Part shown: positions 18,979 to 33,853 of the stretch, in pieces
Layout of the letters: each line of letters opens with the position of its first letter
How positions within the stretch are numbered: position 1 is the first letter of the stretch
NCBI GenBank assembly: GCA_015654595.1
Contig: JAATGQ010000155.1
Location: 62,001-126,000 of the forward strand
Source of the DNA: Chitinophagales bacterium
GTDB taxonomy: Bacteria > Bacteroidota > Bacteroidia > Chitinophagales > Chitinophagaceae
Reading direction: 5' to 3'
DNA length: 64,000 nt
Translations under genes and position numbers: made by a program
The notes under the pieces: generated by a model
Seen by the model: only the letters and a program-made list of their open reading frames with translations
Database searches by the model: none
What the model was told of the DNA's origin: nothing

Positions 18979-21900
18979 TTATCGAATTTCTGCTTCCAGT
19001 CCTTCCTGCCAGTTCTTGTATTCGGGTGTATAATAGAGATAGATATTGCTGGCTTTGCCTTTGTAGGAACCGGGGATATCCGCTTTGAGATCGAGCTCGA
19101 CGGTTTTTGTTTCTTTGGGGGCGAAGCCCATCCAATACAGTACAAGATAGTTGTCGAAGATCTCGTAGTAGGCGATCTTCTTTTTGTCGATCAGTTCCTT
19201 TAACTGCCAGGGCTGTATGGACAGGCCTGCGGGTATTCCGATCTTGGCGATGGCCATGGGCTGAAGGTTATCTTTTGCGTTTTCGGCTTTTATTTCAAGT
19301 CTTACAGTTTCTCCGATTTTGGGTCGAGCGTTGTTGAGCGTTGTGGTCAGCAGCAGTTCGGCCTTCTCGTCATTGGGCGGAGTCAGCGTGTTATAAGCCA
19401 CTTCGAGGTTATAGGGTATGCCTTGCCGGGCGCCGGGGTATTCGACGGTGAAGGTATTAGTTCCTTCTTTCAGATCTGTTGTAGGATCGTCCTTTGGCAA
19501 AATGGTTTTTCCGTTGAGGGTAAAGGTCATTTCGTCGGTGTTTACCTCGCTGCCGATCAGCAGCGAATACTCTGTTACTGCCTGCAGTGCGAGGACAGTG
19601 GCTTGTGTTGAGCCATAGCCGTAGTAGGATTTCTGGGCGAGGATATTTGTGATCAGGCTGGCGATCTTTCCGATATCGGGTGTTTTGTTCCGCATCAGGG
19701 CGAGCGCATAGAGGGAGGTGCTTTCTACATGGAGCGAGGCGTCGCGGGAGTTGACGACGCTGGTTTCCGCATAGCCGTTATGGTCGCGGTAGTTTGTTTC
19801 GAGGGCGTCCATCAGCAGGCGATAGTCCTGGTCGTTCTTAATATTACTGGCAGCAAGCGCCATCATCGCCAGCTGGTAGGCGTCCTTACTATCGAGCGCT
19901 TTTTTGACGGCGGCGGCATATTCCGGCTGTATCTCCTGTCCATAGCCTGCCTGCGTAAGCGCATATACGATATAGATATTGGCTATTTTATCGGGTACGG
20001 AAGCAAAGCGGTCGTAGCCGCCGGATTTGAGCGTGAAGCCGCCGTGTCCATTTCTACGGTTCAGCAGGAAGTCTTTTGTCCGTTGGAGCATCTTTTTGTC
20101 GACGTCGAGAAATTCCTGCATGGCGGTGAATTCCAGTAAGCCGTAGGCGGTCAGCGCTTCGTGTGCGGGGGCTTTGCCAAACCACTCGAAGCCGTTCTCG
20201 GAGGTTTCGAAGCCGATCAGTTTTTTATAGCCGTGCTCGATATAACTCATCGCCTTCTTTTCTATTTCGGGGTTGGATTTGCCTGTCTGCCGCAGGTACT
20301 TCAGGATAAATATATTGGGATAGGTTGTCGATGAAGTTTGTTCAAAGCAGCCGTAGGGTTCCTGCAGCATGGATTCGATGCCGTTGAGCAGCTGGCCTTC
20401 AACGTCTTTATAGACGTGAAGGGTAGCATGAAGGCTGCCGGGGATCGTTTTGTTGATGACGAGGTTTTGATTGGTTGAAGTATTTCCGGAGATCGTTTTT
20501 CTGATCGGAAAGCCTTTTGCTGCTGCAGTAATGGGCAGAGTGACCGATTCATTGCCGAGATTGCCGGTGACTTTGAATTCTATTTGTCCGGTGGTCGGGT
20601 TGGTTGCGGAGAGTGGGACGAGTAATTGTTGGGTGGCGTCTGGGCCAAGGTTGAAGGTGGTTGCGGGTGTGCTGCTTTGGATGTTGGGGGGCAGCGAGAG
20701 GGTAAGGACGCCGTCTAAGGGCTGGCTGGCGTTATTCTTTATGACGACAGGAATAAGCGCTTTGTCGCCGACGGTCAGGTAGGGGGGGATCTTGACGTCT
20801 ACGCTGAGGGCGGCTTTTGCGGCATAGGTTGTTTCGATACGACCGGGTTGTCCATTGAAGCCTATTCCTTCGGCGATGGCGCGGAAGGTGGTAGTAGCGT
20901 CGGAGTTGTAGAATTCCAGTGTGGCTTTTCCATCGCGGTTGGTTTGTACTACCGGATTCCAGTAGATGGTCTCGCGGTAGTCGTTGCGGGTTTCGGGCGC
21001 GATGGAGGTATATTTTGGAGCGTAGAATCGGCGGGCAACGGTATAAGAAGGGGTGTTGACGATGAAGTTTTCCGAAGCGTAGTGGCTGTTCCTTGTCAGA
21101 TCTATGTGTATTTTGCCGTAAAGGGCGGTTTTTGTGGTGATCAGGATGACGCCGTTGGCGGCCCGGGATCCGTATATCGAGACGCTTGCTGCGTCTTTTA
21201 ATACCGAGATGCTGGAAATGTCGTTGACGTTGATTCCGCTGAGGTTGTATTTTTCCTGTGGTATGCCGTCTATTACGAGCAGCGGGTCATTGCCGTTGTG
21301 TAGTATTCCGGCTCCCCTTATGGCTATACGGTTCTCTTGTTCATTATTGGCGAAGTGGTTGATCTCTAGTCCTGCGGCTCTTCCTTCCAATGCTACGGGC
21401 ATATCATTGACCGGAACGGCGGCGAGGTCATTTCCGGTGACAATGGTGACGGACCCGGCGATGCCTTTTCTTCTTTGGACGCCATAGCCTATGACTACTA
21501 CTTCATTTAACGCCTGGTTCTTGTTGATATTCAGGGCGGGGAACTCTGCCTTTGTCTTAAGGCCGACTGGCGGGAGGTGCTGTTCATTTGGTTGTTGCGG
21601 GTGTGGGACAGGTTGTGGGAGGGGCGCTTTTAATGGGGGTGCGAAGGGGTCATCGGGGGTTAATTTTTTTATGGCGTCGTCTTTGAGCGGGTTATATCCG
21701 ATCCCGTTGTTGATCACTTTGATCGAGATCTTATCTTTTTTGTGTAGAGACTGTGCCAGCAGCATATAGCTATCCCTACCCTGTAGATCGGGGAAGAAGA
21801 ACTGGCCGTCTTTCAGCTGTTGTTTGATCACTTTGCCGTTGTAGATATTGTGGATCAGCAGGATGGTAGAGGGGATGGGCTGGCCTTTTTCGTTGGTGAC

Positions 21901-23520
21901 CATACCGCTGACTATATTCGTTTCTTCGGGCGTGTATTTTAGCTGGCGTGCCTGTGTGACCTCGTCGATAAAGTCAAAATAGCGATAGCCATTGGTGAGC
22001 ATTACGAGGTCGAGGGCGGCGAGCGCTTTTGGCTCCTCCTTTTTAAAATAGAATTGCGGTTCTTCTATCCTGCCTTGCAGTTCAGAGCTCATCAGCAGCC
22101 AGGAGAGGATATGATCCTGTTTGTCGTCTGCGAGGGTCCAGAGTTTGTCGTCTACGACAGAAAGAGAAAGATTCGAGGGGATAGCGGTTCCCTTTTCATC
22201 GGTCGTCGTAATGGTCATCGATACCTTTTCTCTGGGCAGATAAGTTTGTTTGTCGGGGGTGATCGTGATGTGCAGCTGGCGGTCGGGGTTCAGGAATACG
22301 ATCCTTTCGGCCAGCGGAGTTTTGTTTTCGTCGTAGAGGGTGAGACGGGTGATACCCATCGGGAAGATCTTTTCGTCGATGGGGAATTCGTTGACCCCTT
22401 TTTTGAGTGACAGTGTCTTAGAATAGTAGGGGACGCTCTTTGCCTGGCCCGTGAGGTGGATGGCGGCCGCGTTCGAGGCGATGAGTTTTACATGGATTAG
22501 GCCGTTTTTTTTACTGACATTCATCACGATACCTTGTGGGGCTGCTTTTGGAAGCACGTACTGTTCCTTTATGCCGGCTGGGGAGGTGATGGTCGCGGAG
22601 TATCTTTTACCAGGCAGAGGAGTAAAGGTAAGCTGGCCCATTCCAAACTTATAGCTGCTGAAGGAGTCGATCATGTTGCCTTCATCGTCTTTTATTATCC
22701 CTTTTACGTCGCTGGGGTTCCCGTATTCATTGATGGCTTTAAAGGCGAGGTTGGTGGCGAGGCCTTCGACAAAGGTTCCTCCTTCGGGCATGAATTGCAG
22801 GTCGATCTTATTCAGTGTGATCGGGATGGATCGCGCTATTGATTCCGTGTAAGAATCGTAGGAGACCGTTACGTTTAGCAGCCCGTCGGTTGTCTTTAGC
22901 GTGGCAGGGAGCGTAAAGGAGAGTCGGGCTTTTCCGTTAGTGTTTGTCGTAAAGGGGTGGGTTGCCTGGACGTCGCCTGCCAGGGCAACCGTAAACTGCC
23001 CGTTGTGGTTGGCGATGGGTTTGTCGTCGAGGCTGCGCATCGAGAAGTCTGCGCTTACTTCGTCGCCTGCGCCGTAACCCTTTTTCGGAAATTCCAGTTT
23101 CATCAGTACGCGGGGGGCGATGATCTTCTGTACGGTAAACTCCTTTGTAAAGAACAGGCTGTCTTTTTCGTTCAGCATCCAGCCCGTATAGCCTTTTAGC
23201 TTGTAGATGCCTCCCGCAGCGTCGGGGTCGAGGGTAAAGGAGCCTTCGCAGTAGCCGTCTTCTACTCGGTAGGTTTGTTTTTCTACGACCGTTCCGGCGG
23301 GACCGTATACGTCGACGTGGGCGGTCGAGCTGATCCTTGAGGGTTTGTTGCTGGCGCCTCTTACCAGATAAAGTTTGAAGAACACCGTTTCTCCGGGGGA
23401 GAAGAAGACGTGGTTGGTTTGTATATAGATCTTTTCCTTGTCGTAGCTAAAGGAAGGGGATTGCGCTTTGAGAGCAGCAATGCCGGATAAAAGAATGAGC
23501 AGGGGGAGTAGACGTTTCAT
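18979..23520 (-). CDS. Alpha-2-macroglobulin family protein with inserted TonB plug domain
   Basis: This is a 1513-residue exported protein. After a plain signal peptide (no lipobox) it has macroglobulin MG-type domains (about 25-500) and a carboxypeptidase-like regulatory segment (about 535-600). A Pro-rich linker (627-660) leads to a SusC-type plug (about 668-800: LNEVVVIGYG, LKDAASVSIYGSRAANGVILITT). The A2M domain (about 840-935: ETRNDYRETIYWNPVV) is followed by a thioester domain with an intact GCFEQ motif (Cys1058-Gln1061) and a C-terminal receptor-binding-like domain. In the family, the thioester traps attacking proteases. The plug replaces or adjoins the region where a bait segment is expected. 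The matching barrel is encoded 5 bp upstream, so plug and barrel appear to be on separate chains. Confidence 0.9.
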   Translation of the reverse strand: MKRLLPLLILLSGIAALKAQSPSFSYDKEKIYIQTNHVFFSPGETVFFKLYLVRGASNKPSRISSTAHVDVYGPAGTVVEKQTYRVEDGYCEGSFTLDPDAAGGIYKLKGYTGWMLNEKDSLFFTKEFTVQKIIAPRVLMKLEFPKKGYGAGDEVSADFSMRSLDDKPIANHNGQFTVALAGDVQATHPFTTNTNGKARLSFTLPATLKTTDGLLNVTVSYDSYTESIARSIPITLNKIDLQFMPEGGTFVEGLATNLAFKAINEYGNPSDVKGIIKDDEGNMIDSFSSYKFGMGQLTFTPLPGKRYSATITSPAGIKEQYVLPKAAPQGIVMNVSKKNGLIHVKLIASNAAAIHLTGQAKSVPYYSKTLSLKKGVNEFPIDEKIFPMGITRLTLYDENKTPLAERIVFLNPDRQLHITITPDKQTYLPREKVSMTITTTDEKGTAIPSNLSLSVVDDKLWTLADDKQDHILSWLLMSSELQGRIEEPQFYFKKEEPKALAALDLVMLTNGYRYFDFIDEVTQARQLKYTPEETNIVSGMVTNEKGQPIPSTILLIHNIYNGKVIKQQLKDGQFFFPDLQGRDSYMLLAQSLHKKDKISIKVINNGIGYNPLKDDAIKKLTPDDPFAPPLKAPLPQPVPHPQQPNEQHLPPVGLKTKAEFPALNINKNQALNEVVVIGYGVQRRKGIAGSVTIVTGNDLAAVPVNDMPVALEGRAAGLEINHFANNEQENRIAIRGAGILHNGNDPLLVIDGIPQEKYNLSGINVNDISSISVLKDAASVSIYGSRAANGVILITTKTALYGKIHIDLTRNSHYASENFIVNTPSYTVARRFYAPKYTSIAPETRNDYRETIYWNPVVQTNRDGKATLEFYNSDATTTFRAIAEGIGFNGQPGRIETTYAAKAALSVDVKIPPYLTVGDKALIPVVIKNNASQPLDGVLTLSLPPNIQSSTPATTFNLGPDATQQLLVPLSATNPTTGQIEFKVTGNLGNESVTLPITAAAKGFPIRKTISGNTSTNQNLVINKTIPGSLHATLHVYKDVEGQLLNGIESMLQEPYGCFEQTSSTTYPNIFILKYLRQTGKSNPEIEKKAMSYIEHGYKKLIGFETSENGFEWFGKAPAHEALTAYGLLEFTAMQEFLDVDKKMLQRTKDFLLNRRNGHGGFTLKSGGYDRFASVPDKIANIYIVYALTQAGYGQEIQPEYAAAVKKALDSKDAYQLAMMALAASNIKNDQDYRLLMDALETNYRDHNGYAETSVVNSRDASLHVESTSLYALALMRNKTPDIGKIASLITNILAQKSYYGYGSTQATVLALQAVTEYSLLIGSEVNTDEMTFTLNGKTILPKDDPTTDLKEGTNTFTVEYPGARQGIPYNLEVAYNTLTPPNDEKAELLLTTTLNNARPKIGETVRLEIKAENAKDNLQPMAIAKIGIPAGLSIQPWQLKELIDKKKIAYYEIFDNYLVLYWMGFAPKETKTVELDLKADIPGSYKGKASNIYLYYTPEYKNWQEGLEAEIR
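20338..20349 (-). other. Thioester motif codons (Cys-Phe-Glu-Gln)
   Basis: These four codons encode CFEQ at residues 1058-1061 of the alpha-2-macroglobulin protein, preceded by Gly1057. Cysteine and glutamine form the internal thioester in active family members. Its conservation argues against a decayed or purely structural protein. Confidence 0.85.
21121..21519 (-). other. TonB-plug coding segment inside the alpha-2-macroglobulin gene
   Basis: This segment encodes residues 668-800, a full SusC-type plug. It starts with the consensus LNEVVVIGYG and ends with NGVILITTK. It is in frame with macroglobulin domains on both sides, so it is a true domain insertion and not a gene end. Confidence 0.85.
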
Positions 23521-23525
23521 ACTTT

Positions 23526-25946
23526 TTAAAATTGTATGGAGGCGTTAAGGCCAAAACTTTTTGAAGAAGGGAGGTTAAAGAAATCGAGACCGCTGGCATC
23601 GGATTGGTCGAACAGGTGCTGGCTGGGGTCTGCGCCTTTGTAGGCGGACCATAGTATCAGGTTTTCAGCATAAGCCGTGAGTCGTATCCGTTGTAAGTAT
23701 TTTTTTATATTGATCGTATAGGCCAGCGAGAGCAGATGCAGCCGGATATTGTCTGCCTTTTGAATGTAGGATTCCGCCACGCCTGTGTAGCCGTATCGTA
23801 CCCATTTGTTTTGCTGGACGGGTAGTTGCGGGTTGTAGTTGGCGAGGCTTCGTTCTGCGCCGGTAATGGCGCTTCGGCCGTAGTAGTCGAGCACGGCCTG
23901 GGCGCCGTTCCAGACATCACCACCCTTTCTGTATTCCCATTCGATGTCGAGGGCTAACCTGCTCCAGGTGATCATATGGGAGAATTTTAGCGTATAGGCT
24001 GGTGTCGGGTTGGCGATGACGGAAGGTTTATCGCTGGCCAGGGGGAAGCCGTCGGGGCCGATCAGCTTTTTATGATTGGCGTCTCTCAGCCAGGTATTGC
24101 CTGTGATCACTCCAAGCGGCTGTCCCTTTATAAGCGTGTTATGAACCGTGCTAAAGCCTGCTATGGCCAGGCTGTCCTGGCCGTTGTCGATATGCGTTAC
24201 CGTGTTGGAGTAAGTGTAAAACGAAATATTGTTGCTGATGCTAAGGTCCCCGTTTATTGCAAAGATGGTTTTGGGGATAAGTGTCAGCTCAAGGCCTTTG
24301 TAGCGGATGTCGGCGAGCGTATTGAGCAGCAGCTGGTGGTTTTCATAGGTTGGGAATGGATTGTTCTTATTGTTGCGGAGAGATAGATCTGCGAAGATGC
24401 AGAACCATTCTTGGACATCGATCTCCGCTTTTGCTGTAAACTCCTGGTGTTGTATGGGGGAGGCGAGCATAAAGCTTTGCAGCTCTGTCGTCGGCATAAA
24501 AGAGAAGAATTGTTGAGGGGACAGTTGTGTCAGCAGGTAAGGAGTGTATGAATGGTTCAGGTTGGGTTCACTATAAAAAGCGCTGTAGGTGGCTGCGAGC
24601 TTTATCCAAAGGCCGCGCAGATTGTGGCCGGCTGCAAAGGCACCGAGTTCTGGAAGGAACCAGCTGCTTTTTTGGGTGGTGGTGGAGTGGTAAACCTTAT
24701 CGCCGATGTTCAGGCCTGTATTGAAATAGTCTCTTTCATAGGTGGCATTGAAAGAAAGCGTTCCCTCGTTGGAAGCCCTGGTATAGTGATAGAAGGCTGC
24801 TGCGTCGGGATAGGCAATCTTTATGTCGTCGTTGTTGTAGTGATAATTGATGGTGGCGCTGGATTGCAGGTGGTCTATGGGGTGCTGGATCTTATAAGTG
24901 CTGTAGGCGGCGGCGGTATAGTGTTTTTCGTTTTGTTGCCGGGTGTAAGGAAGTCCTGTTGGATAGAAGGCTGTGCCTGGTTTTAGCGATTGGTTGCTGT
25001 TTTGGTCGATCGCGTCTAAGGACGAACTAAGGCCAAAGTTGAAGGTCCCTTTTGCTTTTTCTAAGGCGAGGCTGCCTGTCTGTTGCGTAAGCCGGTCGTA
25101 ATGGCCGTTGTGATTTAACAGGAATAGCGGGTTGTCGGCCTGGTTGCTATAGGCTTTTTGCGGGTTTTGTGCGTTGCCATAGCTGATCGGCGTAAGCAGT
25201 GCGTTCTCATAGACGCGGTTCAGAAAGCCGTTGCCGTTGTCGTTGGAGAAGTCGGATGAGAAATAGTTGTATGCCCCTTTTATCGAGATCTTTTTGATGA
25301 ACTTTTCGACGGATAGCGAGAGCCTGTCCTCGTTATTGGTGTTGTCGGGTATTGTCTTGTTTTCATGGATGTGGTTCGTGGCAAGAAAAAAGGACCAAAG
25401 GGGGGTGTATGAATTTGCCAGTATGTTTGCCTTTGCAGAAAGCGAGTGGCTGAGCAGATAGCCTTTGCGGAACAGGTTGTTGTTGTATACCGGGCCATCG
25501 TAGGCGGCGGTGTGGATGGCGGGGCCATAGCTGAATAGTTCGTTTGTTTCCGGTCCAAGCCAGGTTAGTTGTCCGTTGCGGCTTTCGCCTTGTACGTATT
25601 CATTTTGCAGTGCGGGTTTTTTGTTGGTTGTCCGGACGGCGGCAGCGATTGTGTAATCGCCGCTGATCCTAAGGAATCGATTGTCGGCGGGAATGAGGTC
25701 TATGCCGCCATTATGTATACTAACGGTTCTTATTCCCCGATAAAAGATATTGTTGTAGTTGGTGAAGGCCTTTTTCAGGCGGAGTGGTTTTGTGGTGTCT
25801 TTATTTGCCTTGGTGATGGTTGGAAGACTATCGGTTTCGATCAGCGATTGATAGTCTGATGAGGTGATGGGGGTTACGGGTTGCTGCGCGACTGCGGGTG
25901 GTAAGGCCAGCAGAAGGATGAGCAGGGTGTGTAATAGTTTGTGCAT
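23526..25946 (-). CDS. SusC-like outer-membrane barrel lacking its own plug
   Basis: This is an exported protein of 806 residues. After a signal peptide (cleavage near AVAQ) there is a short linker and then a barrel region with SusC-like blocks: YVQGESRNGQLTWLGPE, FSYGPAI, TYAENL-type AYAENLILWSAYKGADP, and an amphipathic C-terminus ending GLNASIQF. No carboxypeptidase-like domain and no plug are present, although normal SusC proteins (1000-1100 residues) carry both before the barrel. The missing plug is found in the next gene, 5 bp downstream. ATG 25946 is preferred over the TTG at 25952. It is the first gene of the pair; no -7 box was found in its 140-bp upstream gap. Confidence 0.82.
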   Translation of the reverse strand: MHKLLHTLLILLLALPPAVAQQPVTPITSSDYQSLIETDSLPTITKANKDTTKPLRLKKAFTNYNNIFYRGIRTVSIHNGGIDLIPADNRFLRISGDYTIAAAVRTTNKKPALQNEYVQGESRNGQLTWLGPETNELFSYGPAIHTAAYDGPVYNNNLFRKGYLLSHSLSAKANILANSYTPLWSFFLATNHIHENKTIPDNTNNEDRLSLSVEKFIKKISIKGAYNYFSSDFSNDNGNGFLNRVYENALLTPISYGNAQNPQKAYSNQADNPLFLLNHNGHYDRLTQQTGSLALEKAKGTFNFGLSSSLDAIDQNSNQSLKPGTAFYPTGLPYTRQQNEKHYTAAAYSTYKIQHPIDHLQSSATINYHYNNDDIKIAYPDAAAFYHYTRASNEGTLSFNATYERDYFNTGLNIGDKVYHSTTTQKSSWFLPELGAFAAGHNLRGLWIKLAATYSAFYSEPNLNHSYTPYLLTQLSPQQFFSFMPTTELQSFMLASPIQHQEFTAKAEIDVQEWFCIFADLSLRNNKNNPFPTYENHQLLLNTLADIRYKGLELTLIPKTIFAINGDLSISNNISFYTYSNTVTHIDNGQDSLAIAGFSTVHNTLIKGQPLGVITGNTWLRDANHKKLIGPDGFPLASDKPSVIANPTPAYTLKFSHMITWSRLALDIEWEYRKGGDVWNGAQAVLDYYGRSAITGAERSLANYNPQLPVQQNKWVRYGYTGVAESYIQKADNIRLHLLSLAYTINIKKYLQRIRLTAYAENLILWSAYKGADPSQHLFDQSDASGLDFFNLPSSKSFGLNASIQF

Positions 25947-26039
25947 AAGCAATCTGTTAATGTGGATCGGCTTCTGGTTTAAGACAGGATGCTTTTGCGA
26001 ATTCGATTACACACGAAGGAGAAATAATTTTTTAAATGC

Positions 26040-26068
26040 AAAGAGCCTCTGACTATCAGAGGCTCTTT
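26040..26068 (-). terminator. Intrinsic terminator of the xylan operon
   Basis: A 13-bp perfect stem (26040-26052 with 26056-26068, AAAGAGCCTCTGA and its complement) has a 3-nt loop. Read on the minus strand it ends in a short T tract and lies 18 bp past the acetylesterase stop at 26087. It separates the xylan operon from the downstream barrel/alpha-2-macroglobulin pair. Confidence 0.8.
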
Positions 26069-26086
26069 GTGTTTGTCGTGTTTGCC

Positions 26087-27959: not shown

Positions 27960-30383
27960 TTATTTTTGATAAGGGTAGATCTCTTTTATCGTTCCATCGC
28001 TGTTATAGGTCAGTTCTGTGACTTTTACGGAGCGTAGATGAGTGACGCCGTCAGATAATGAGGAGTCGTGATAGAAAAGCCACCATTTGCCTTTAAATTC
28101 TACGATAGAATGATGGTTGGTCCAGCCGATCACGGGATGGAGGAGGATGCCTTTATAGGTAAAGGGTCCATAGGGGTTGTCGCCGATCGCGTAGCAGATA
28201 TAGTGCGTATCGCCTGTGGAGTAGGAGAAATAGTATTTACCGTTGTATTTGTGCATCCAGGAAGCTTCGAAGAATCTTCTGTTGTTGTCGCCTTGCAGCA
28301 GCGGGTTGCCATTCTCGTCGAGGATCACGACGTCTTTTGGCGTCTCGTCGAACTGCAGCATATCGTTTGTCAGCCGGGCTACTTTTGCGGTGAGGGCGTG
28401 GTCGTGTTCTGCGGGCAGGTGCGAATAGGGGCCGGGTTCGGATGCGTCAAAGCTGCCGGTTCGCCAGCGTTGGAGCTGTCCGCCCCAGATGCCGCCGAAA
28501 TAGAGATAGACTTTTCCGTCGTCGTCGGTGAAGACAGCCGGATCGATCGAGAAGCTGTTCCTTATCGCTTCGGGCTGCGGGATGAAGGGGCCTGTTGGCG
28601 AATCGCTGACGGCGACGCCGATCTGGAAGATACCGTCGGAGCGTTTGGCGGGGAAGTAGAGATAGTACTTGCCGTCTTTTGTCGTTGCGTCGGGGGCCCA
28701 TAGTTGTTTTTCTGCCCAGGGTACGTCCTTTACGTGGAGTGCGATGCCATGGTCTGTTGTTTCGCCATTGGGGCTGTCCATCGATAATACGTGGTAGTCT
28801 TCCATGGCGAAGTGGCTGCCGAGGTCATCGAAGGGGATGTCGTTTTCGATATCGTGCGAGGGGTAGATATAGATCTTGCCGTTAAAGACGTGGGCGGAGG
28901 GATCGGCGGTATAGATATGTTTGACGAGGTGCTGGGGGCCGGTATTGGCTTGCCCTTCGGATCGGGCGCTTTCCCGGCTGGAGGTGCGGCGGTCTTTCAG
29001 GTCGCCCTCGATCTTTACTTCCATTTTCTTATCGATCTCATAAAAGAATAAGAGGGCTGCGCCGATCAGGAAAGGGATCGAGGGATAGATGCTCACGAGC
29101 AGTTTGGTTCCCTGAATGGCGCCTTCTGTCTGGACCGCGCTGTTTGGCGCGTAGTGGTACAGTCCAAGTATCCAGGTGAGCAGGGCGCTGCCGATACTAA
29201 GACCCGCTTTCAGACCTACCATCATCGCGGAGAAGATGATCGCTGTTGCGCGGCGGTTGTTCTTCCATTCGCTGTAGTCGGCGACGTCGGCGATCATTGC
29301 CCATAGTAGAGGGATGGTGATACCGTAAAAGAAGCCGTGCAGGATCTGGGAGAGAAAGATAAGGGCAATGGCGTTTGGAGGAAAGAAAAAGAACACAAGC
29401 AGAAAAGCGGTTGATAGAAATAGCCCTATGCCATAGACGTCTCTTTTGCCGTATTTGTCGGCCAGTCTTTTCGAGAAGGTGATGCCGACGATCATGAAGA
29501 TGATGCCGCCAGCGTTGAACAGCCCAAAACTTGCAGAGACGGGGTCTTTTCCAAAGATGGTCAGCGTAGTGATAACGGGTGTCATCACGCGGGTCAGGCT
29601 ATCCTTGTCGACGTAGTTTTGGAAGTAGTAGACATAGGCGCCGCCTTTCATCGCCAGCGTGATAAAGATCATGGTGGTGAGCACCAGCATGATGACCCAG
29701 GGTTTATTCCGGAACAGGTCGCCGAGGTCTTCTTTGAGGCTTGACTTCTGTTCCGGTTTTGGTACGATCCTTTCCCTTGTCGTAAAGAAGGTGATCAGCA
29801 GCATTCCGGCGCCGATAACGGCGAGCCAGGTCATTACCTTTTCGATGCCTATGGCTTTGTTGCCGCCGCCTGCCGTCTCGATGATAGACAGCATAAAGGC
29901 CTGTACAAAGAACTGCGCAAACATTACGGCTACGAACCGGTAGGCGGAGAGGCTGTTGCGTTCTTTCATATCGCCGGTGATCACGCCGCTGAGCGCGGAG
30001 TAGGGCAGGTTGTTGGCGGCATAGAGTAACAGCAGCAGCGAGTAGGTAACGACAGCGTAGATCACTTTTCCTTTATAGGAGAAATGAGGGGTGGTAAAGG
30101 CGAGGACGGCTATCACGCCAAGGGGTATGGCGGTAAACAGTATCCATGGTCTGAACTTGCCCCATCGGGATTGTGTGCGGTCAGCCAATGCGCCGATGAT
30201 CGGGTTAAAGCCAAAGGCTGCGACGAGGCCCACGGCAAGGATGATGACAGAGGAGTGAGCGGGAGCGAGGTGGTATATATCCGTATAAAAGTAAGCGAGG
30301 TAGGTTACGAGGGTTTGGAAGACCAGGTTGGCGGCGAGGTCGCCGAGGCTATAGCCGATCTTCTCCAGGATGGACATCTTCAT
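27960..30383 (-). CDS. GPH-family sugar symporter fused to a GH43 glycosidase
   Basis: This single 807-residue chain has two parts. Residues 1-455 are a glycoside-pentoside-hexuronide (MelB/XynB-type) transporter with about twelve helices (YSLGDLAANL, NPIIGALADRTQSRWGKFRPW, MIADVADYSEW). A linker (456-485) leads to a complete GH43 five-bladed propeller (486-807). Its three carboxylates are Asp494 (TADPSA), Asp614 (SIDPAVF) and Glu706 (FFEASW). GPH transporters have a cytoplasmic C-terminus, so the glycosidase should be cytoplasmic and tethered to the exit side of the transporter, trimming imported xylo-oligosaccharides. The start overlaps the GH115-GH10 stop by 4 bp (ATGA), showing translational coupling. 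Confidence 0.92.
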   Translation of the reverse strand: MKMSILEKIGYSLGDLAANLVFQTLVTYLAYFYTDIYHLAPAHSSVIILAVGLVAAFGFNPIIGALADRTQSRWGKFRPWILFTAIPLGVIAVLAFTTPHFSYKGKVIYAVVTYSLLLLLYAANNLPYSALSGVITGDMKERNSLSAYRFVAVMFAQFFVQAFMLSIIETAGGGNKAIGIEKVMTWLAVIGAGMLLITFFTTRERIVPKPEQKSSLKEDLGDLFRNKPWVIMLVLTTMIFITLAMKGGAYVYYFQNYVDKDSLTRVMTPVITTLTIFGKDPVSASFGLFNAGGIIFMIVGITFSKRLADKYGKRDVYGIGLFLSTAFLLVFFFFPPNAIALIFLSQILHGFFYGITIPLLWAMIADVADYSEWKNNRRATAIIFSAMMVGLKAGLSIGSALLTWILGLYHYAPNSAVQTEGAIQGTKLLVSIYPSIPFLIGAALLFFYEIDKKMEVKIEGDLKDRRTSSRESARSEGQANTGPQHLVKHIYTADPSAHVFNGKIYIYPSHDIENDIPFDDLGSHFAMEDYHVLSMDSPNGETTDHGIALHVKDVPWAEKQLWAPDATTKDGKYYLYFPAKRSDGIFQIGVAVSDSPTGPFIPQPEAIRNSFSIDPAVFTDDDGKVYLYFGGIWGGQLQRWRTGSFDASEPGPYSHLPAEHDHALTAKVARLTNDMLQFDETPKDVVILDENGNPLLQGDNNRRFFEASWMHKYNGKYYFSYSTGDTHYICYAIGDNPYGPFTYKGILLHPVIGWTNHHSIVEFKGKWWLFYHDSSLSDGVTHLRSVKVTELTYNSDGTIKEIYPYQK

Positions 30384-33300
30384 AATGAGGTTTTGGTTGC
30401 GATGACGTTGAAGTAAACAAGTTTTGGCTGAAAGTCCCGGTCGAACAGTAAGGGGTAGTTGGTCCGGCCAAGGATTGGCCAGTCGTTAAGCCAGGACTGG
30501 CTGTCGTTTACGCCCCAGAACGTGACGCGGCTGATATTCCTGCGGTACTTCAGGAAGAGTCTGAACAGGCTGACGTAGGCGTCTGACTGGATGGCTGCGA
30601 TCGAGTCCGGAAGGTTATCCGGGTAGGGGTTCATCGCTGCGCTGCCCCTGGCTATTGCGTTGACGTCGGCGGTATTGCCGTTCTTAGGGTTGGGCAGGAC
30701 GCTGAGGTCAAGTTCCGTGAACATCACTTCGATGCCGAGCGCCGAGAAGGCTTTTATACTTTCCTCGATCTCCTTTAGCGGGACATTGCGGGCATTCCAG
30801 TGGCCCTGGATACCGACCCCGTCGATGCGGACGCCAGCGGCCTGGATCTTTTTTATCAGCGCGATGGCGCCTGCTCTTTTTGCCGGTTGTTCGATATTAT
30901 AGTCGTTGTAATAAAGCTTGGTATGCGGCGCCGCTTTTTGCGTTAGCCGGAAGGCTTCTACGAGATAGCCGGGGCCGAGCTTTTGGAGGAAGATGGAGTT
31001 TCGGAGCGTTCCGTCTTCGTTTAGCGCTTCGTTTACTACGTCCCAGGAATAGACCTTGCCGTCATAGCGGCTCGCGAGTGTCGTAATATGGTGTTGGAAG
31101 TATTCGCGGACCGAGTCGGCGCTTTTCATTGTCTCCATGAAGGAGGGCAGCTGGCTGTGCCAGATCAGGTTATGGGCGTTGATCCTGATGCCGTTGTGCT
31201 GTCCGTAGGCGACCAGTTTGTCGGCCAGGTCGAAGTTGAACGTATTCCAGCGGGGCTCGATCACTTCCGCTTTCATGATATTTTCCGGTGTGACTGCGTT
31301 GAACTGTTGTTTGATCAGCTGGTCTGCCTCCGGATCTTTTTGTTCAATCTGTGTGGCGTCCATAGCGGTTCCGATAAGGAAGTCGTTTTTGAAGACTTCT
31401 TTCAGGCTTGAGGTGTTCTGGGGGGCGTTGTTGCCGGCTTTTGCTATTGACGGGCCAAGATAGCTGGGTTTCATGCCGCCAAAGTCGAGGACGAGTTTTT
31501 GCAGGATGATGGAAGGGCTTATCATCGTATAGTGAAGGGTGTGTGGTCCTTTTGCCGTGATAGGATGGCGGGTGGTCGTTATGATGATATTGTTGGCGAC
31601 CCAGTTACTCCATTCCTTTTGGTTGTGGTCGTCCTTGTCGATGGAGACCGTTTGTGGCTGATCGTTGTCGATGGAGACCGCATATTGGAGACCTTTGCTC
31701 TCGCCCGAAAAATTCAGGGTGGGAGAGAAATAAAGGTTGACGTTGAGGTTGCCGGTATCTGTTGCGTCGAAGTCATAGTCGAGGCTGGGCGGATTGGCGG
31801 CGGGAGTTGCCGTTACCGGAAAGGTAGTGATGCCGTCGCCGTCGCGGCCGATGTTGGGAATGATATGCCATTCGATCCCGTTGGTTTCCTTTTTCCGGCT
31901 GTAGTGGGAGGCGGGGAATACAAGAGTGGTGTTGTCGATGGCTTGTGTGGTGTCGGCGGGGCCATCTGGTATCGCCGGCATTTTCTGGTGTTCCGGTTGC
32001 TGCCAGTACGTATAACCGATATGCGTCTGGTCCATCATGTGGTTCCACTTGCCGTTGCCGAGCTGGTTGTATTCGAGGCTGATCAATGAGTCTTCGGCAT
32101 AGTATTCCCAGGCTTTGGCAGCGTTGTGTTTAGCGACGGCGGTATAAAGGTTTTGGAGGTTGGCAAAGGCTTTAACGGGGTGGAGGACCAGTTCAAAATA
32201 AGTGTCTTTATATTCAGCCGGGAGCGCTTCGTTGATGGTTTCAGCGCGGGTGACGAGTCGGTTCCAGTCGTTGGTGATGCGGTTGAGCTCGTTATAATCC
32301 TGGAGGCTGTAGGTGTTGGCGTCGAGGAGTTCCGGTTTTCGTCTCGATGCGTATTGTGCGTAGGTCCGGAGTATCCTGCCGATCCCGCTGGCGTAGGCGG
32401 GACCGAACTGGGTGGCGGCCCAGGCGGTATAGTACTGGTCGAGATTGTTTTCATTCCATTCGCCGACATTCCATGCGTAGTCGAGGAAGAAGGAGATGGG
32501 GAGTTCCATTGGTTTCAGGTCGCCGACATTGACGATCCAGATATCTTTTACCTTATGGCTGTAGGCGAGGTGCATTTGCTCCCAGACGCGGGCGATATTG
32601 TTGGTGTTGATCCATTTATAATTGCGGGGATCACCGACGTAGTCGAAATGATAGTAGATGCCATAGCCGCCGGATCTCGGTTTGGTGTCGATGGGGGGCA
32701 GTCTGCGGATATTGCCCCAGTTGTCATCGCAGAGGAGCAGGGTTACGTCGTCGGGTACGCGCATGCCTTTGTCGTAGTAGTCTTGTACTTCTTTATAGAG
32801 GGCCCAGAGTTGTGGGGTTTTGTTGGCGGGTTTACCCGTGACCGTTTCGAGTATCTTGCGTTGGTCGGCGACGATATTTTCGAGGAGTTGGATGTTGGCG
32901 CCTTCCGTCATGGGCATGTCGCCGTCGCCGCGCATGCCGATAGTGACGATGCTTTCGTGGTGGTCCATGTTTTCGATGCCTTTTTTCCAGAAGGCCTGGA
33001 GTGTGGCTTTGTTGTCGTCATAGTTCCAGGGGCCGTGGCCGTAGCGTTTCCATTCCTGTTGTGCGCGTAGCATCGGTTCGTGGTGGTAGGTGCCCATCAC
33101 GATGCCCCATTTGTTGGCGAGGACCGGATTGAGTGTGTCGTCGTCATTAAAGGCGCTGCCCCACATGGCGGGCCAGAGGTAGTTGGCTTTCAGTCTTAGC
33201 AGCAGTTCGAAGACGTGTTCGTACATGCTGTGGTTAAAGCCGCCGAACTTTTCTTTTGTCCAGCCAGAGAGGGCGGGGGCTTCGTCGTTGAGGAAGATAC

Positions 33301-33853
33301 CGCGGTATTTGACCGAGGGGCCGGTGGATCGATAGGGCTCGGGCCCGATGTAGACTTCCGATTTCTTTTTGGCGGGGACGTCGGCCCACCAGTACCAGGG
33401 GGAGACACCCATCTGGCGGGAGAGTTCGAATACCCCGTAGGCGGCGCCGCGTTTGTCGCTGCCGATGATAAAGAGTTTATTGTTGAGGACCTGGATGGCG
33501 AAGGCTTCCCATTTCCCTTTTATACCGCTGACGTCGAGGTGGTTTTCTTTTATCAGGCGGTTGATGGAGGGGGATCCGTCCAGCGTGCCGATGACAATCC
33601 CGGTGGGGGTGGGGTTATGAATGATCTCCGGTTTTTTTCCCGTTACCGTGGTGATGTCCTGCTGTAATAGTTCGGCGGTCTTTTGGACCAGCCAGTCGTC
33701 GTTCTTGTCCGTATAGATCGATGCTGCCCTTGCGGGGCCGGCAACCGGAAAAGAGCCTGGCGTATTCTTTTGCAGCAGGTGCAGCTGTGCCTGGGCGTTA
33801 AAGGAGATAGTGGTGATCGCCGATGCGACCAGGGGCAAGATCTTATGTTTCAT
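30380..33853 (-). CDS. GH115 alpha-glucuronidase fused to GH10 xylanase
   Basis: This exported bifunctional enzyme has 1157 residues. After the signal peptide (cleavage near NAQAQ), residues 30-800 form a GH115 alpha-glucuronidase: KYRGIFLNDEAPAL, LKANYLWPAMW, GTYHHEPM, YHFDYVGDPRNYKWI, then a C-terminal beta domain. Residues 815-1157 form a GH10 xylanase with acid/base Glu942 (DVVNEAL) and nucleophile Glu1047 (FTELDLS). Together they remove (4-O-methyl)glucuronic acid side groups and cut the xylan backbone. The two activities are normally on separate genes. It lies between the SDR (19-bp gap) and the transporter-GH43 gene (4-bp overlap). Confidence 0.93.
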   Translation of the reverse strand: MKHKILPLVASAITTISFNAQAQLHLLQKNTPGSFPVAGPARAASIYTDKNDDWLVQKTAELLQQDITTVTGKKPEIIHNPTPTGIVIGTLDGSPSINRLIKENHLDVSGIKGKWEAFAIQVLNNKLFIIGSDKRGAAYGVFELSRQMGVSPWYWWADVPAKKKSEVYIGPEPYRSTGPSVKYRGIFLNDEAPALSGWTKEKFGGFNHSMYEHVFELLLRLKANYLWPAMWGSAFNDDDTLNPVLANKWGIVMGTYHHEPMLRAQQEWKRYGHGPWNYDDNKATLQAFWKKGIENMDHHESIVTIGMRGDGDMPMTEGANIQLLENIVADQRKILETVTGKPANKTPQLWALYKEVQDYYDKGMRVPDDVTLLLCDDNWGNIRRLPPIDTKPRSGGYGIYYHFDYVGDPRNYKWINTNNIARVWEQMHLAYSHKVKDIWIVNVGDLKPMELPISFFLDYAWNVGEWNENNLDQYYTAWAATQFGPAYASGIGRILRTYAQYASRRKPELLDANTYSLQDYNELNRITNDWNRLVTRAETINEALPAEYKDTYFELVLHPVKAFANLQNLYTAVAKHNAAKAWEYYAEDSLISLEYNQLGNGKWNHMMDQTHIGYTYWQQPEHQKMPAIPDGPADTTQAIDNTTLVFPASHYSRKKETNGIEWHIIPNIGRDGDGITTFPVTATPAANPPSLDYDFDATDTGNLNVNLYFSPTLNFSGESKGLQYAVSIDNDQPQTVSIDKDDHNQKEWSNWVANNIIITTTRHPITAKGPHTLHYTMISPSIILQKLVLDFGGMKPSYLGPSIAKAGNNAPQNTSSLKEVFKNDFLIGTAMDATQIEQKDPEADQLIKQQFNAVTPENIMKAEVIEPRWNTFNFDLADKLVAYGQHNGIRINAHNLIWHSQLPSFMETMKSADSVREYFQHHITTLASRYDGKVYSWDVVNEALNEDGTLRNSIFLQKLGPGYLVEAFRLTQKAAPHTKLYYNDYNIEQPAKRAGAIALIKKIQAAGVRIDGVGIQGHWNARNVPLKEIEESIKAFSALGIEVMFTELDLSVLPNPKNGNTADVNAIARGSAAMNPYPDNLPDSIAAIQSDAYVSLFRLFLKYRRNISRVTFWGVNDSQSWLNDWPILGRTNYPLLFDRDFQPKLVYFNVIATKTSL

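What the first reader, a model, noticed from the sequence alone, without database searches (positions are those of the whole stretch)
18979..25946. Split SusC: the TonB plug is carried by an alpha-2-macroglobulin and the barrel is a separate gene
A normal SusC has plug and barrel in one chain. Here the upstream gene encodes a signal peptide plus barrel with no plug. The next gene, 5 bp later, encodes macroglobulin domains, a SusC-type plug with its full signature, an A2M domain and an intact CFEQ thioester. The plug lies just before the A2M domain, near where a bait region would be. One reading is that cleavage or reaction of the macroglobulin by an attacking protease moves the plug and opens or closes the barrel. 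Another is that the barrel anchors or displays the trap at the outer membrane. The mechanism is inference; the domain split is seen directly.
Basis: partly seen in the sequence, partly recalled or inferred. Interest (0 to 1): 0.85.

Follow-up and report, generated by a model that had tools for sequence, protein, structure and literature searches.

The report
Membrane pore plugged by separate macroglobulin
In some Bacteroidota, two adjacent genes encode an outer-membrane pore that has no plug of its own and a complement-like thioester protein that carries the matching plug, which points to a pore-coupled protein trap or gate of a kind I did not find described.

Summary
The upstream gene (25946..23526, minus strand) encodes a secreted SusC-type barrel with no plug. 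The next gene, after 5 nt (23520..18979), encodes an alpha-2-macroglobulin (A2M) with a complete SusC plug and TonB box at the bait-region position, and an intact GCFEQ motif.

The pairing is conserved. Among 135 distinct held A2Ms, all 57 with a full plug and enough upstream sequence have a plugless barrel upstream (own included); 2 more barrels sit beside A2Ms with half a plug; no other A2M with enough flank has one. In a later class- and phylum-wide sample the split was 4 of 4 versus 0 of 57. None of 48 barrels given to Pfam matches a plug. The barrel model has 22 strands; its best solved match is SusC BT2264.

Best reading: a natural split TonB-dependent transporter. A periplasmic A2M inserts its tethered plug into the barrel in trans. 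Surface display is disfavoured. Docking and function were not shown: no complex was modelled, plug and barrel show no specific co-divergence, partial plugs occur without barrels, and published A2M work argues against tension as the trigger. The rows listed by nine literature searches of open-access papers held no description of it.

The parts
23526..25946 (-). Plugless SusC-type outer-membrane barrel, 806 aa, signal peptide about 1-21 (by eye)
25677..25883 (-). N-terminal stretch of the mature barrel before strand 1 (conserved S-x-D-Y motif; low model confidence at model residues 19-32 and 42-48)
25464..25625 (-). A highly conserved stretch of the barrel family between strands 1 and 2 (Q..Y.QG.S.NG.L.W.GPET.E.FSYGP)
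23521..23525 (-). 5-nt gap between the two genes
18979..23520 (-). A2M-family protein of 1513 aa with embedded SusC plug
23461..23520 (-). Signal peptide of the A2M protein (by eye), no mature N-terminal Cys
21982..23460 (-). Macroglobulin domains, with helices at the end (residues 21-513)
21721..21924 (-). CarboxypepD_reg/NTE-like domain (about residues 533-600; Pfam match below cut-off)
21508..21675 (-). Predicted disordered, variable, Pro-rich tether before the TonB box (residues 616-671)
21487..21507 (-). TonB box NEVVVIG (residues 672-678)
21121..21522 (-). SusC-type plug with TonB box (residues 667-800), SusC signature at 767-797
20971..21120 (-). Post-plug linker with conserved R.FY.P.Y motif (residues 801-850)
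20707..20970 (-). A2M/MG7 domain (PF00207)
19567..20412 (-). Thioester-containing TED domain
20338..20352 (-). GCFEQ thioester motif (residues 1057-1061)
19015..19332 (-). C-terminal macroglobulin/receptor-type domain (Pfam matches below cut-off)
26033..26075 (+). 20-pair hairpin between the upstream esterase gene and the barrel gene; scored terminator-like on the + strand only, so it says little about minus-strand transcription
   Evidence: terminator-like sites in the region: 13 found, 12.4 expected

Best explanation
The two genes form a natural split TonB-dependent transporter. The first product is a SusC barrel that enters the outer membrane without a plug. The second is a periplasmic A2M whose SusC plug, held on a long disordered tether and a shorter linker at the bait-region position, enters the barrel from below. 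The docked plug closes the pore and parks the thioester protein at its inner mouth. TonB can grip the TonB box at the plug's start, so opening the pore means moving the segment that, in other A2Ms, controls thioester exposure. The likeliest job is a pore-coupled trap or checkpoint that covalently captures polypeptides, perhaps proteases or bacteriocins, as they reach the periplasm. Shown: the domain split, co-conservation, TonB box, predicted 22-strand barrel fold and thioester motif. Inferred: plug docking in trans (about 0.8), periplasmic location (about 0.75), trapping of incoming polypeptides (about 0.35).
For: Association: of 135 distinct held A2Ms, 57 have a full plug and a barrel, 0 have a full plug with over 1.5 kb of flank and no barrel, 60 have neither, 2 have a half plug and a barrel. 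Second sample: 4 of 4 full-plug A2Ms have the barrel, 0 of 57 others with enough flank do. In the own family the same 16 genomes hold both genes. In the reverse direction, 18 of 19 fetched barrel hits sit directly upstream of an A2M; the 19th was an ordinary SusC. No plug by Pfam in 48 barrels, nor by my plug profile in any barrel found upstream of an A2M; 11 of 48 keep an NTE domain, as expected of a SusC that lost only its plug. No third gene is shared widely: the largest neighbour cluster covers 13 of 66 pair loci. The barrel model has pLDDT 87.9, pTM 0.83 and 22 long strands; best Foldseek match SusC BT2264. TonB-box-like motif in 60 of 60 distinct full plugs (50 by pattern; 10 by eye, loose in L058 and L194); the SusC TonB box is DEVVVTG, and Bt1763 mutants in it grow as badly as those without SusD (PMC7782687 passages). 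The plug is about as conserved as the macroglobulin part (0.52 vs 0.60; tether 0.30). Precedent for plug in trans: a soluble FpvAI plug partly complements a plugless FpvAI barrel (PMC10994204 passages). SusC plugs are displaced from the barrel in vitro in some states (PMC7782687). In A2M, retraction of the cleaved bait segment triggers the conformational change (PMC9352918 passages). Of 75 A2M middle segments without a full plug, 7 carry a TonB_C domain and 15 hit Pfam Plug, again linking this region to TonB machinery.
Against: No complex was modelled, and the plug itself is predicted with low confidence (pLDDT about 50-70). Plug divergence does not track barrel divergence (r 0.37; partial correlation 0.10, reached in 262 of 2000 permutations), whereas the MG N-terminal part (0.93, partial 0.57) and MG7 (0.91, partial 0.42) do; TED gives 0.70 and -0.31. 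A2M plugs intermix with SusC plugs in a poorly resolved tree. By motif pattern, 10 A2Ms with enough flank have a partial plug and no adjacent barrel, so plug sequence can persist without a dedicated barrel. In L165 the barrel lies about 1.2 kb upstream. [quoted passage not shown] No data exist here on substrate, location or thioester reactivity.
Confidence: 0.6

Rival explanations
1. Protease-triggered gate: an attacking protease cuts the tether next to the plug, the A2M changes shape, and the plug is withdrawn or locked, opening or sealing the barrel.
For: The plug sits between a variable, Pro-rich, predicted disordered tether and MG7, where bait cleavage triggers other A2Ms (PMC4498604 and PMC9352918 passages).
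Against: No cleavage-site evidence. The conserved TonB box supplies another way of moving the plug. The passages seen describe bacterial A2Ms as protease inhibitors, not gates (PMC4498604).
Confidence: 0.2
2. Outer-membrane anchor: the plug-barrel contact only tethers the trap at the outer membrane, without transport. In the first reader's version the trap is displayed on the surface.
For: Fits the conserved gene pair and the long linkers.
Against: A pure anchor need not keep the TonB box, which all 60 distinct full plugs retain in recognisable form. For surface display: both plug ends face the periplasm in TBDTs (recalled), and there is no mature N-terminal Cys and no T9SS sorting hit.
Confidence: 0.15
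3. Nutrient importer: the pair imports a large ligand, perhaps peptide or protein, and the A2M acts as a periplasmic acceptor or lid, the thioester being secondary.
For: Closest folds are SusCs, including the RagAB peptide importer. In the window the pair lies among carbohydrate-utilisation genes.
Against: The immediate neighbours in the window are an esterase and an alpha/beta hydrolase, not a SusD, and no third gene is widely shared. GCFEQ is present in 80 of 81 A2M ORFs of the named loci; the exception is a C-terminal fragment.
Confidence: 0.2
4. The A2M plug is only a TonB-binding or adaptor module and does not enter the neighbouring barrel; the barrel is closed by its own loops.
For: Partial plugs and TonB_C domains occur in the same region in relatives without a barrel. 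Plug and barrel show no specific co-divergence.
Against: Full plugs with enough flank co-occur with a plugless barrel in every case held, and the barrels align to SusC barrels without an extra internal domain.
Confidence: 0.15

Closest known systems
SusC/RagA TonB-dependent transporters (TIGR04056), e.g. BT2264, Bt1763, RagA
   Same: Same plug signature and TonB box; 22-strand barrel; best Foldseek matches; some barrels keep the NTE domain (11 of 48).
   Different: Plug and barrel are on two chains; the plug is inside an A2M; no adjacent SusD in the window.
Bacterial alpha-2-macroglobulins (E. coli ECAM/YfhM, Salmonella A2M; PMC4498604, passages)
   Same: Macroglobulin domains, A2M/MG7, TED with CxEQ thioester motif, probable periplasmic location.
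   Different: The bait position carries a TBDT plug; the linked gene is an outer-membrane barrel rather than PBP1c; no membrane anchor seen.
Complement C3/C5
   Same: Foldseek ranks C3/C5 among the best matches of the MG part; a separate domain is inserted before MG7, as the anaphylatoxin domain is in C3 (domain order of C3 recalled).
   Different: The inserted domain is a membrane-pore plug, and the setting is bacterial.
Artificially split FpvAI (plugless barrel plus soluble plug; PMC10994204, passages)
   Same: Plug supplied in trans restores partial uptake and pyocin sensitivity.
   Different: An engineered construct; the plug has no partner domains.
LptD/LptE and SprA/Plug (recalled, not tested here)
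   Same: Outer-membrane barrel occluded by a separate protein.
   Different: Unrelated plug proteins; no TBDT plug, TonB box or thioester.

Membership tests
SusC/RagA TonB-dependent transporter | Plug and barrel in one chain | tested here: not met
SusC/RagA TonB-dependent transporter | 22-strand SusC-like barrel | tested here: met
   By model and alignment:
SusC/RagA TonB-dependent transporter | SusC plug with signature and TonB box | tested here: met
   On the A2M chain:
SusC/RagA TonB-dependent transporter | TIGR04056 score above the curated cut-off (368) | tested here: not met
   Barrel 69 bits, A2M 161.5 bits
SusC/RagA TonB-dependent transporter | Adjacent SusD lid | tested here: not met
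   Window neighbours. In the other loci SusD was not searched for by name; no widely shared third gene was seen
SusC/RagA TonB-dependent transporter | TonB-driven uptake | not testable with these tools
   Needs experiment
Alpha-2-macroglobulin superfamily | MG domains, A2M domain and TED | tested here: met
Alpha-2-macroglobulin superfamily | CxEQ thioester motif | tested here: met
   GCFEQ at 1057-1061; 80 of 81 ORFs
Alpha-2-macroglobulin superfamily | Bait region between the bait-region domain and MG7 | tested here: inconclusive
   A plug on a predicted disordered tether occupies the site; cleavage not testable
Alpha-2-macroglobulin superfamily | Covalent capture of protease | not testable with these tools
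   Needs experiment

The most novel reading that the evidence does not exclude
A TonB-armed covalent trap. The docked plug holds the A2M in its native state under the pore. When a polypeptide threads the barrel and TonB withdraws the plug, the bait-like segment is displaced, the thioester is exposed, and the incoming polypeptide is covalently captured at the pore mouth: a bacterial complement-like reaction fired by outer-membrane transport rather than by proteolysis.
Probability: 0.18. Interest if true: 0.96.

Novelty: categorically new. Interest (0 to 1): 0.86.

Why it matters
If the plug docks in trans, this is a natural split TonB-dependent transporter and directly couples an outer-membrane pore to a complement-family thioester protein. 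It gives a natural system for the open question of whether and how far the plug leaves a TBDT barrel during transport, because the plug here belongs to another protein. It also suggests what some Bacteroidota A2Ms do: they may guard or sample what crosses the outer membrane. The components are known kinds; the combination is what I rate as new, and that rating rests on the rows listed by nine searches of an open-access library.

Tried and rejected
Chance juxtaposition or misassembly: rejected, the pair recurs in two samples. Barrel as a truncated or pseudogene SusC: rejected, open frame, full barrel, conserved family. A plug hidden in the barrel N-terminus: rejected, 0 of 48 by Pfam. A conserved third component: none found within 6 kb; the largest cluster covers 13 of 66 loci. 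Co-divergence of plug and barrel as docking evidence: tried, negative. Single origin of the A2M plug: not supported; in a tree of 60 A2M and only 12 SusC plugs the labels change 8 times, at least 3 forced by starred branches, although they are more clustered than shuffled labels (mean 11.3; 1 of 500 as low); 129 columns, poor resolution. Barrel Glu positions recalled as plug contacts in other TBDTs: E at 502 in 39 of 59, E/D at 553 in 57 of 59 barrels; suggestive only. Lipoprotein scan of A2M starts: 11 of 60 pattern hits; the five examples printed were cysteines in or before the hydrophobic signal segment, so not used.

Limits and rows dropped. A2M ORFs under 900 aa or without GCFEQ were not counted. 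Three short contig-end matches (G210, G388 contig 65, G362) and three matches (G963, G1109, G840) were not fetched. In one search, four of 65 A2Ms lacked upstream sequence; one A2M there duplicated an earlier sequence. One search was given 48 barrels, not all those held (59 distinct). The Fisher value (5.8e-33) ignores relatedness and is not relied on.

Full report
What is there. On the minus strand, the gene at 25946..23526 encodes an 806-aa secreted protein with a SusC-type barrel and no plug. Five bases later the gene at 23520..18979 encodes a 1513-aa protein with macroglobulin domains, a weakly matched CarboxypepD_reg-like domain, a complete SusC plug, an A2M/MG7 domain, a thioester domain with GCFEQ and a weakly matched C-terminal receptor-type domain. 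By sequence, solved relatives of the plug region are SusC and RagA; those of the C-terminal half are A2M, CD109 and complement C3/C4. A 20-pair hairpin lies between the upstream esterase gene and the barrel gene, but it scores as terminator-like only on the plus strand and such sites are no more frequent here than in shuffles, so transcription of the pair is undecided.

The barrel is a whole SusC barrel. A profile of the barrel family (59 sequences used) aligns to six full-length SusCs from the point where the plug ends to the C-terminus (barrel 85-861, SusC 259-1069, E 3.4e-45). The AlphaFold2 model of the mature barrel has mean pLDDT 87.9 and pTM 0.83, and I count 22 long strands in it. Its best Foldseek matches are SusC proteins, first BT2264 (E 2.3e-36, TM-score 0.75 by query length). 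Of 48 family members given to Pfam, none matches the plug at E<=0.01 and 11 keep the SusC N-terminal domain, which is what a SusC that lost only its plug would look like.

The pair is conserved. Searching 396 genomes of the order with the barrel gave 20 genomes at E<=1e-30; in 18 of 19 contexts fetched the next gene was an A2M, and the nineteenth hit was an ordinary SusC. Searching the same 396 with the A2M C-terminus gave 63 genomes at E<=1e-40. In the own family the 16 positive genomes are the same in both searches. I then classified A2Ms with a plug profile (five own-genome SusC plugs plus the window plug) and a family barrel profile, over those loci and 80 named loci. After removing duplicates, 135 remain: 57 with full plug and barrel (own included), 3 with full plug at a contig end, 60 with neither, 10 plug-negative at a contig end, 3 with a partial plug and no barrel, and 2 scored plug-negative with a barrel. 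Read by eye, the last two (L061, L063) carry half a plug. The barrel ends within 60 nt of the A2M ORF in 56 of 58 cases; L171 has 166 nt (its A2M ORF start is uncertain) and L165 about 1.2 kb. In a later class and phylum sample, 4 of 4 full-plug A2Ms had the barrel and 0 of 57 others did, with 4 lacking upstream sequence. On the A2M tree the full plug changes state 3 times and the barrel 2 times, the difference being the half-plug pair, so the independent events are few and plain significance tests overstate the case.

Distribution. Named carriers include Chitinophaga, Niastella, Filimonas, Paraflavitalea, Desertivirga, Hyunsoonleella, Aquimarina, uncultured Tenacibaculum, Chryseobacterium, Epilithonimonas and Carboxylicivirga. 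It is rare overall: 5 of 395 genomes of a phylum sample hold the A2M family at E<=1e-60, four of them with the pair (and the window). None of 32 genus-mates of the window genome, several of them incomplete, has the A2M at E<=1e-20. The nearest A2M in the tree (support 98) is from Desertivirga arenae, a Sphingobacteriaceae species, so the window copy may have been acquired horizontally or lost by its kin. No third gene travels widely with the pair: within 6 kb the largest neighbour cluster covers 13 of 66 pair loci.

The plug looks functional. All 60 distinct full plugs have a TonB-box-like motif (50 by pattern; the other 10 read by eye, loose in L058 and L194); the window has NEVVVIG at 672-678. 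In Bt1763 the SusC TonB box is DEVVVTG, and mutants in it grew as poorly on levan as those without SusD, which the authors take as non-functional (PMC7782687, passages). Mean majority-residue frequency is 0.52 in the plug, 0.60 in the macroglobulin part and 0.30 in the tether. In the model of residues 20-1001 the macroglobulin domains are confident, residues 616-691 have pLDDT under 50, and the plug itself is only moderately predicted (pLDDT about 50-70). The fragment's best solved matches are complement C3/C5 and E. coli A2M.

The site is a bait-type site. The plug lies after the A2M_BRD match (378-459, slightly below Pfam's cut-off) and before MG7, where A2Ms carry the bait region and C3 carries its anaphylatoxin domain (C3 domain order recalled). 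Of 75 A2M middle segments without a full plug, 15 hit Pfam Plug and 7 a TonB C-terminal domain, and others show variable linkers. So the region repeatedly holds parts of TonB machinery.

How it may work. In TBDTs both ends of the plug face the periplasm (recalled). The A2M has a plain signal peptide by eye, no mature N-terminal cysteine and no T9SS sorting hit in NCBIfam. I therefore place the A2M in the periplasm with its plug reaching up into the barrel. Supplying a plug in trans is known to work in an engineered case: soluble FpvAI plug partly complements a plugless FpvAI barrel (PMC10994204, passages). SusC plugs are displaced from the barrel in vitro in closed states (PMC7782687). In A2M, retraction of the cleaved bait segment from a channel triggers the change that exposes the thioester (PMC9352918, passages; PMC4498604, passages on E. 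coli A2M). Joining these, withdrawal of the plug by TonB would move the A2M's trigger segment. That last step is inference.

Evidence against. I could not model the complex. Plug distances correlate poorly with barrel distances (r 0.37, partial 0.10), unlike the MG N-terminal part (0.93) and MG7 (0.91), over 56 pairs. A2M plugs and 12 SusC plugs intermix in a poorly resolved tree, though they are more clustered than shuffled labels. This may mean plug exchange with the genome's many SusC genes, or that plug and barrel are not tightly matched. By motif pattern, partial plugs occur in 10 A2Ms with enough flank and no adjacent barrel. The authors of PMC9352918 conclude that the bait region of human A2M does not hold the native state by tension and that a break in it is essential, which counts against a purely mechanical trigger.

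Literature. Ten searches were run, nine of which bear on this system or on split plugs (one search was on bacterial A2Ms). Three returned nothing. In the others I saw listings only, apart from the passages cited above: 20 of 38 papers, 15 of 221, 10 of 39, and all rows. None of the listed rows is, by title and start of abstract, about a plug-bearing A2M or a natural plugless SusC partner. The library holds open-access papers only and no preprints, so absence from print is not shown.

Verdict. The surface-display reading is disfavoured, and the protease-gating reading is open. The combination is rated categorically new, with the function unproven.

Noticed in passing
L098 5046-10196 (+), and other members of alignment A4: 7 of 75 A2M middle segments without a full plug carry a TonB C-terminal domain (PF03544) in the region where others carry the plug.
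   Followed up: partly
L061 3379-10495, L063 981-8187: Barrel with an NTE-like domain (by eye) followed by an A2M carrying only half a plug; possibly an intermediate or a reduced form.
   Followed up: partly
L111 3030-9511, L221 5781-11128: A2M ORFs that begin with a charged, anti-sigma-like segment rather than a signal peptide, after an ORF of 186 aa that resembles an ECF sigma factor (both read by eye).
   Followed up: no
L022 10076-12463 (-), L023 7931-10372 (-), same genome as the window: Short MG2 proteins of 795 and 813 aa without a thioester domain; L023 has a weak Pfam Plug match, L022 only BLAST similarity to part of the A2M plug region.
   Followed up: partly
window 27963-30383 (-): One ORF fuses an MFS_2 sugar permease to a GH43 glycosidase.
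   Followed up: no
window 30383-33853 (-): One ORF fuses GH115 and GH10 domains.
   Followed up: no
window 18979-25946: 0 of 32 genus-mates hold the A2M at E<=1e-20, and its nearest A2M is from Desertivirga arenae (Sphingobacteriaceae), suggesting horizontal transfer or patchy loss.
   Followed up: partly
A2M plugs in L046-L060, L062 and L144-L223: A2M plugs intermix with SusC plugs and do not track barrel divergence, which may reflect plug exchange with SusC paralogues.
   Followed up: partly
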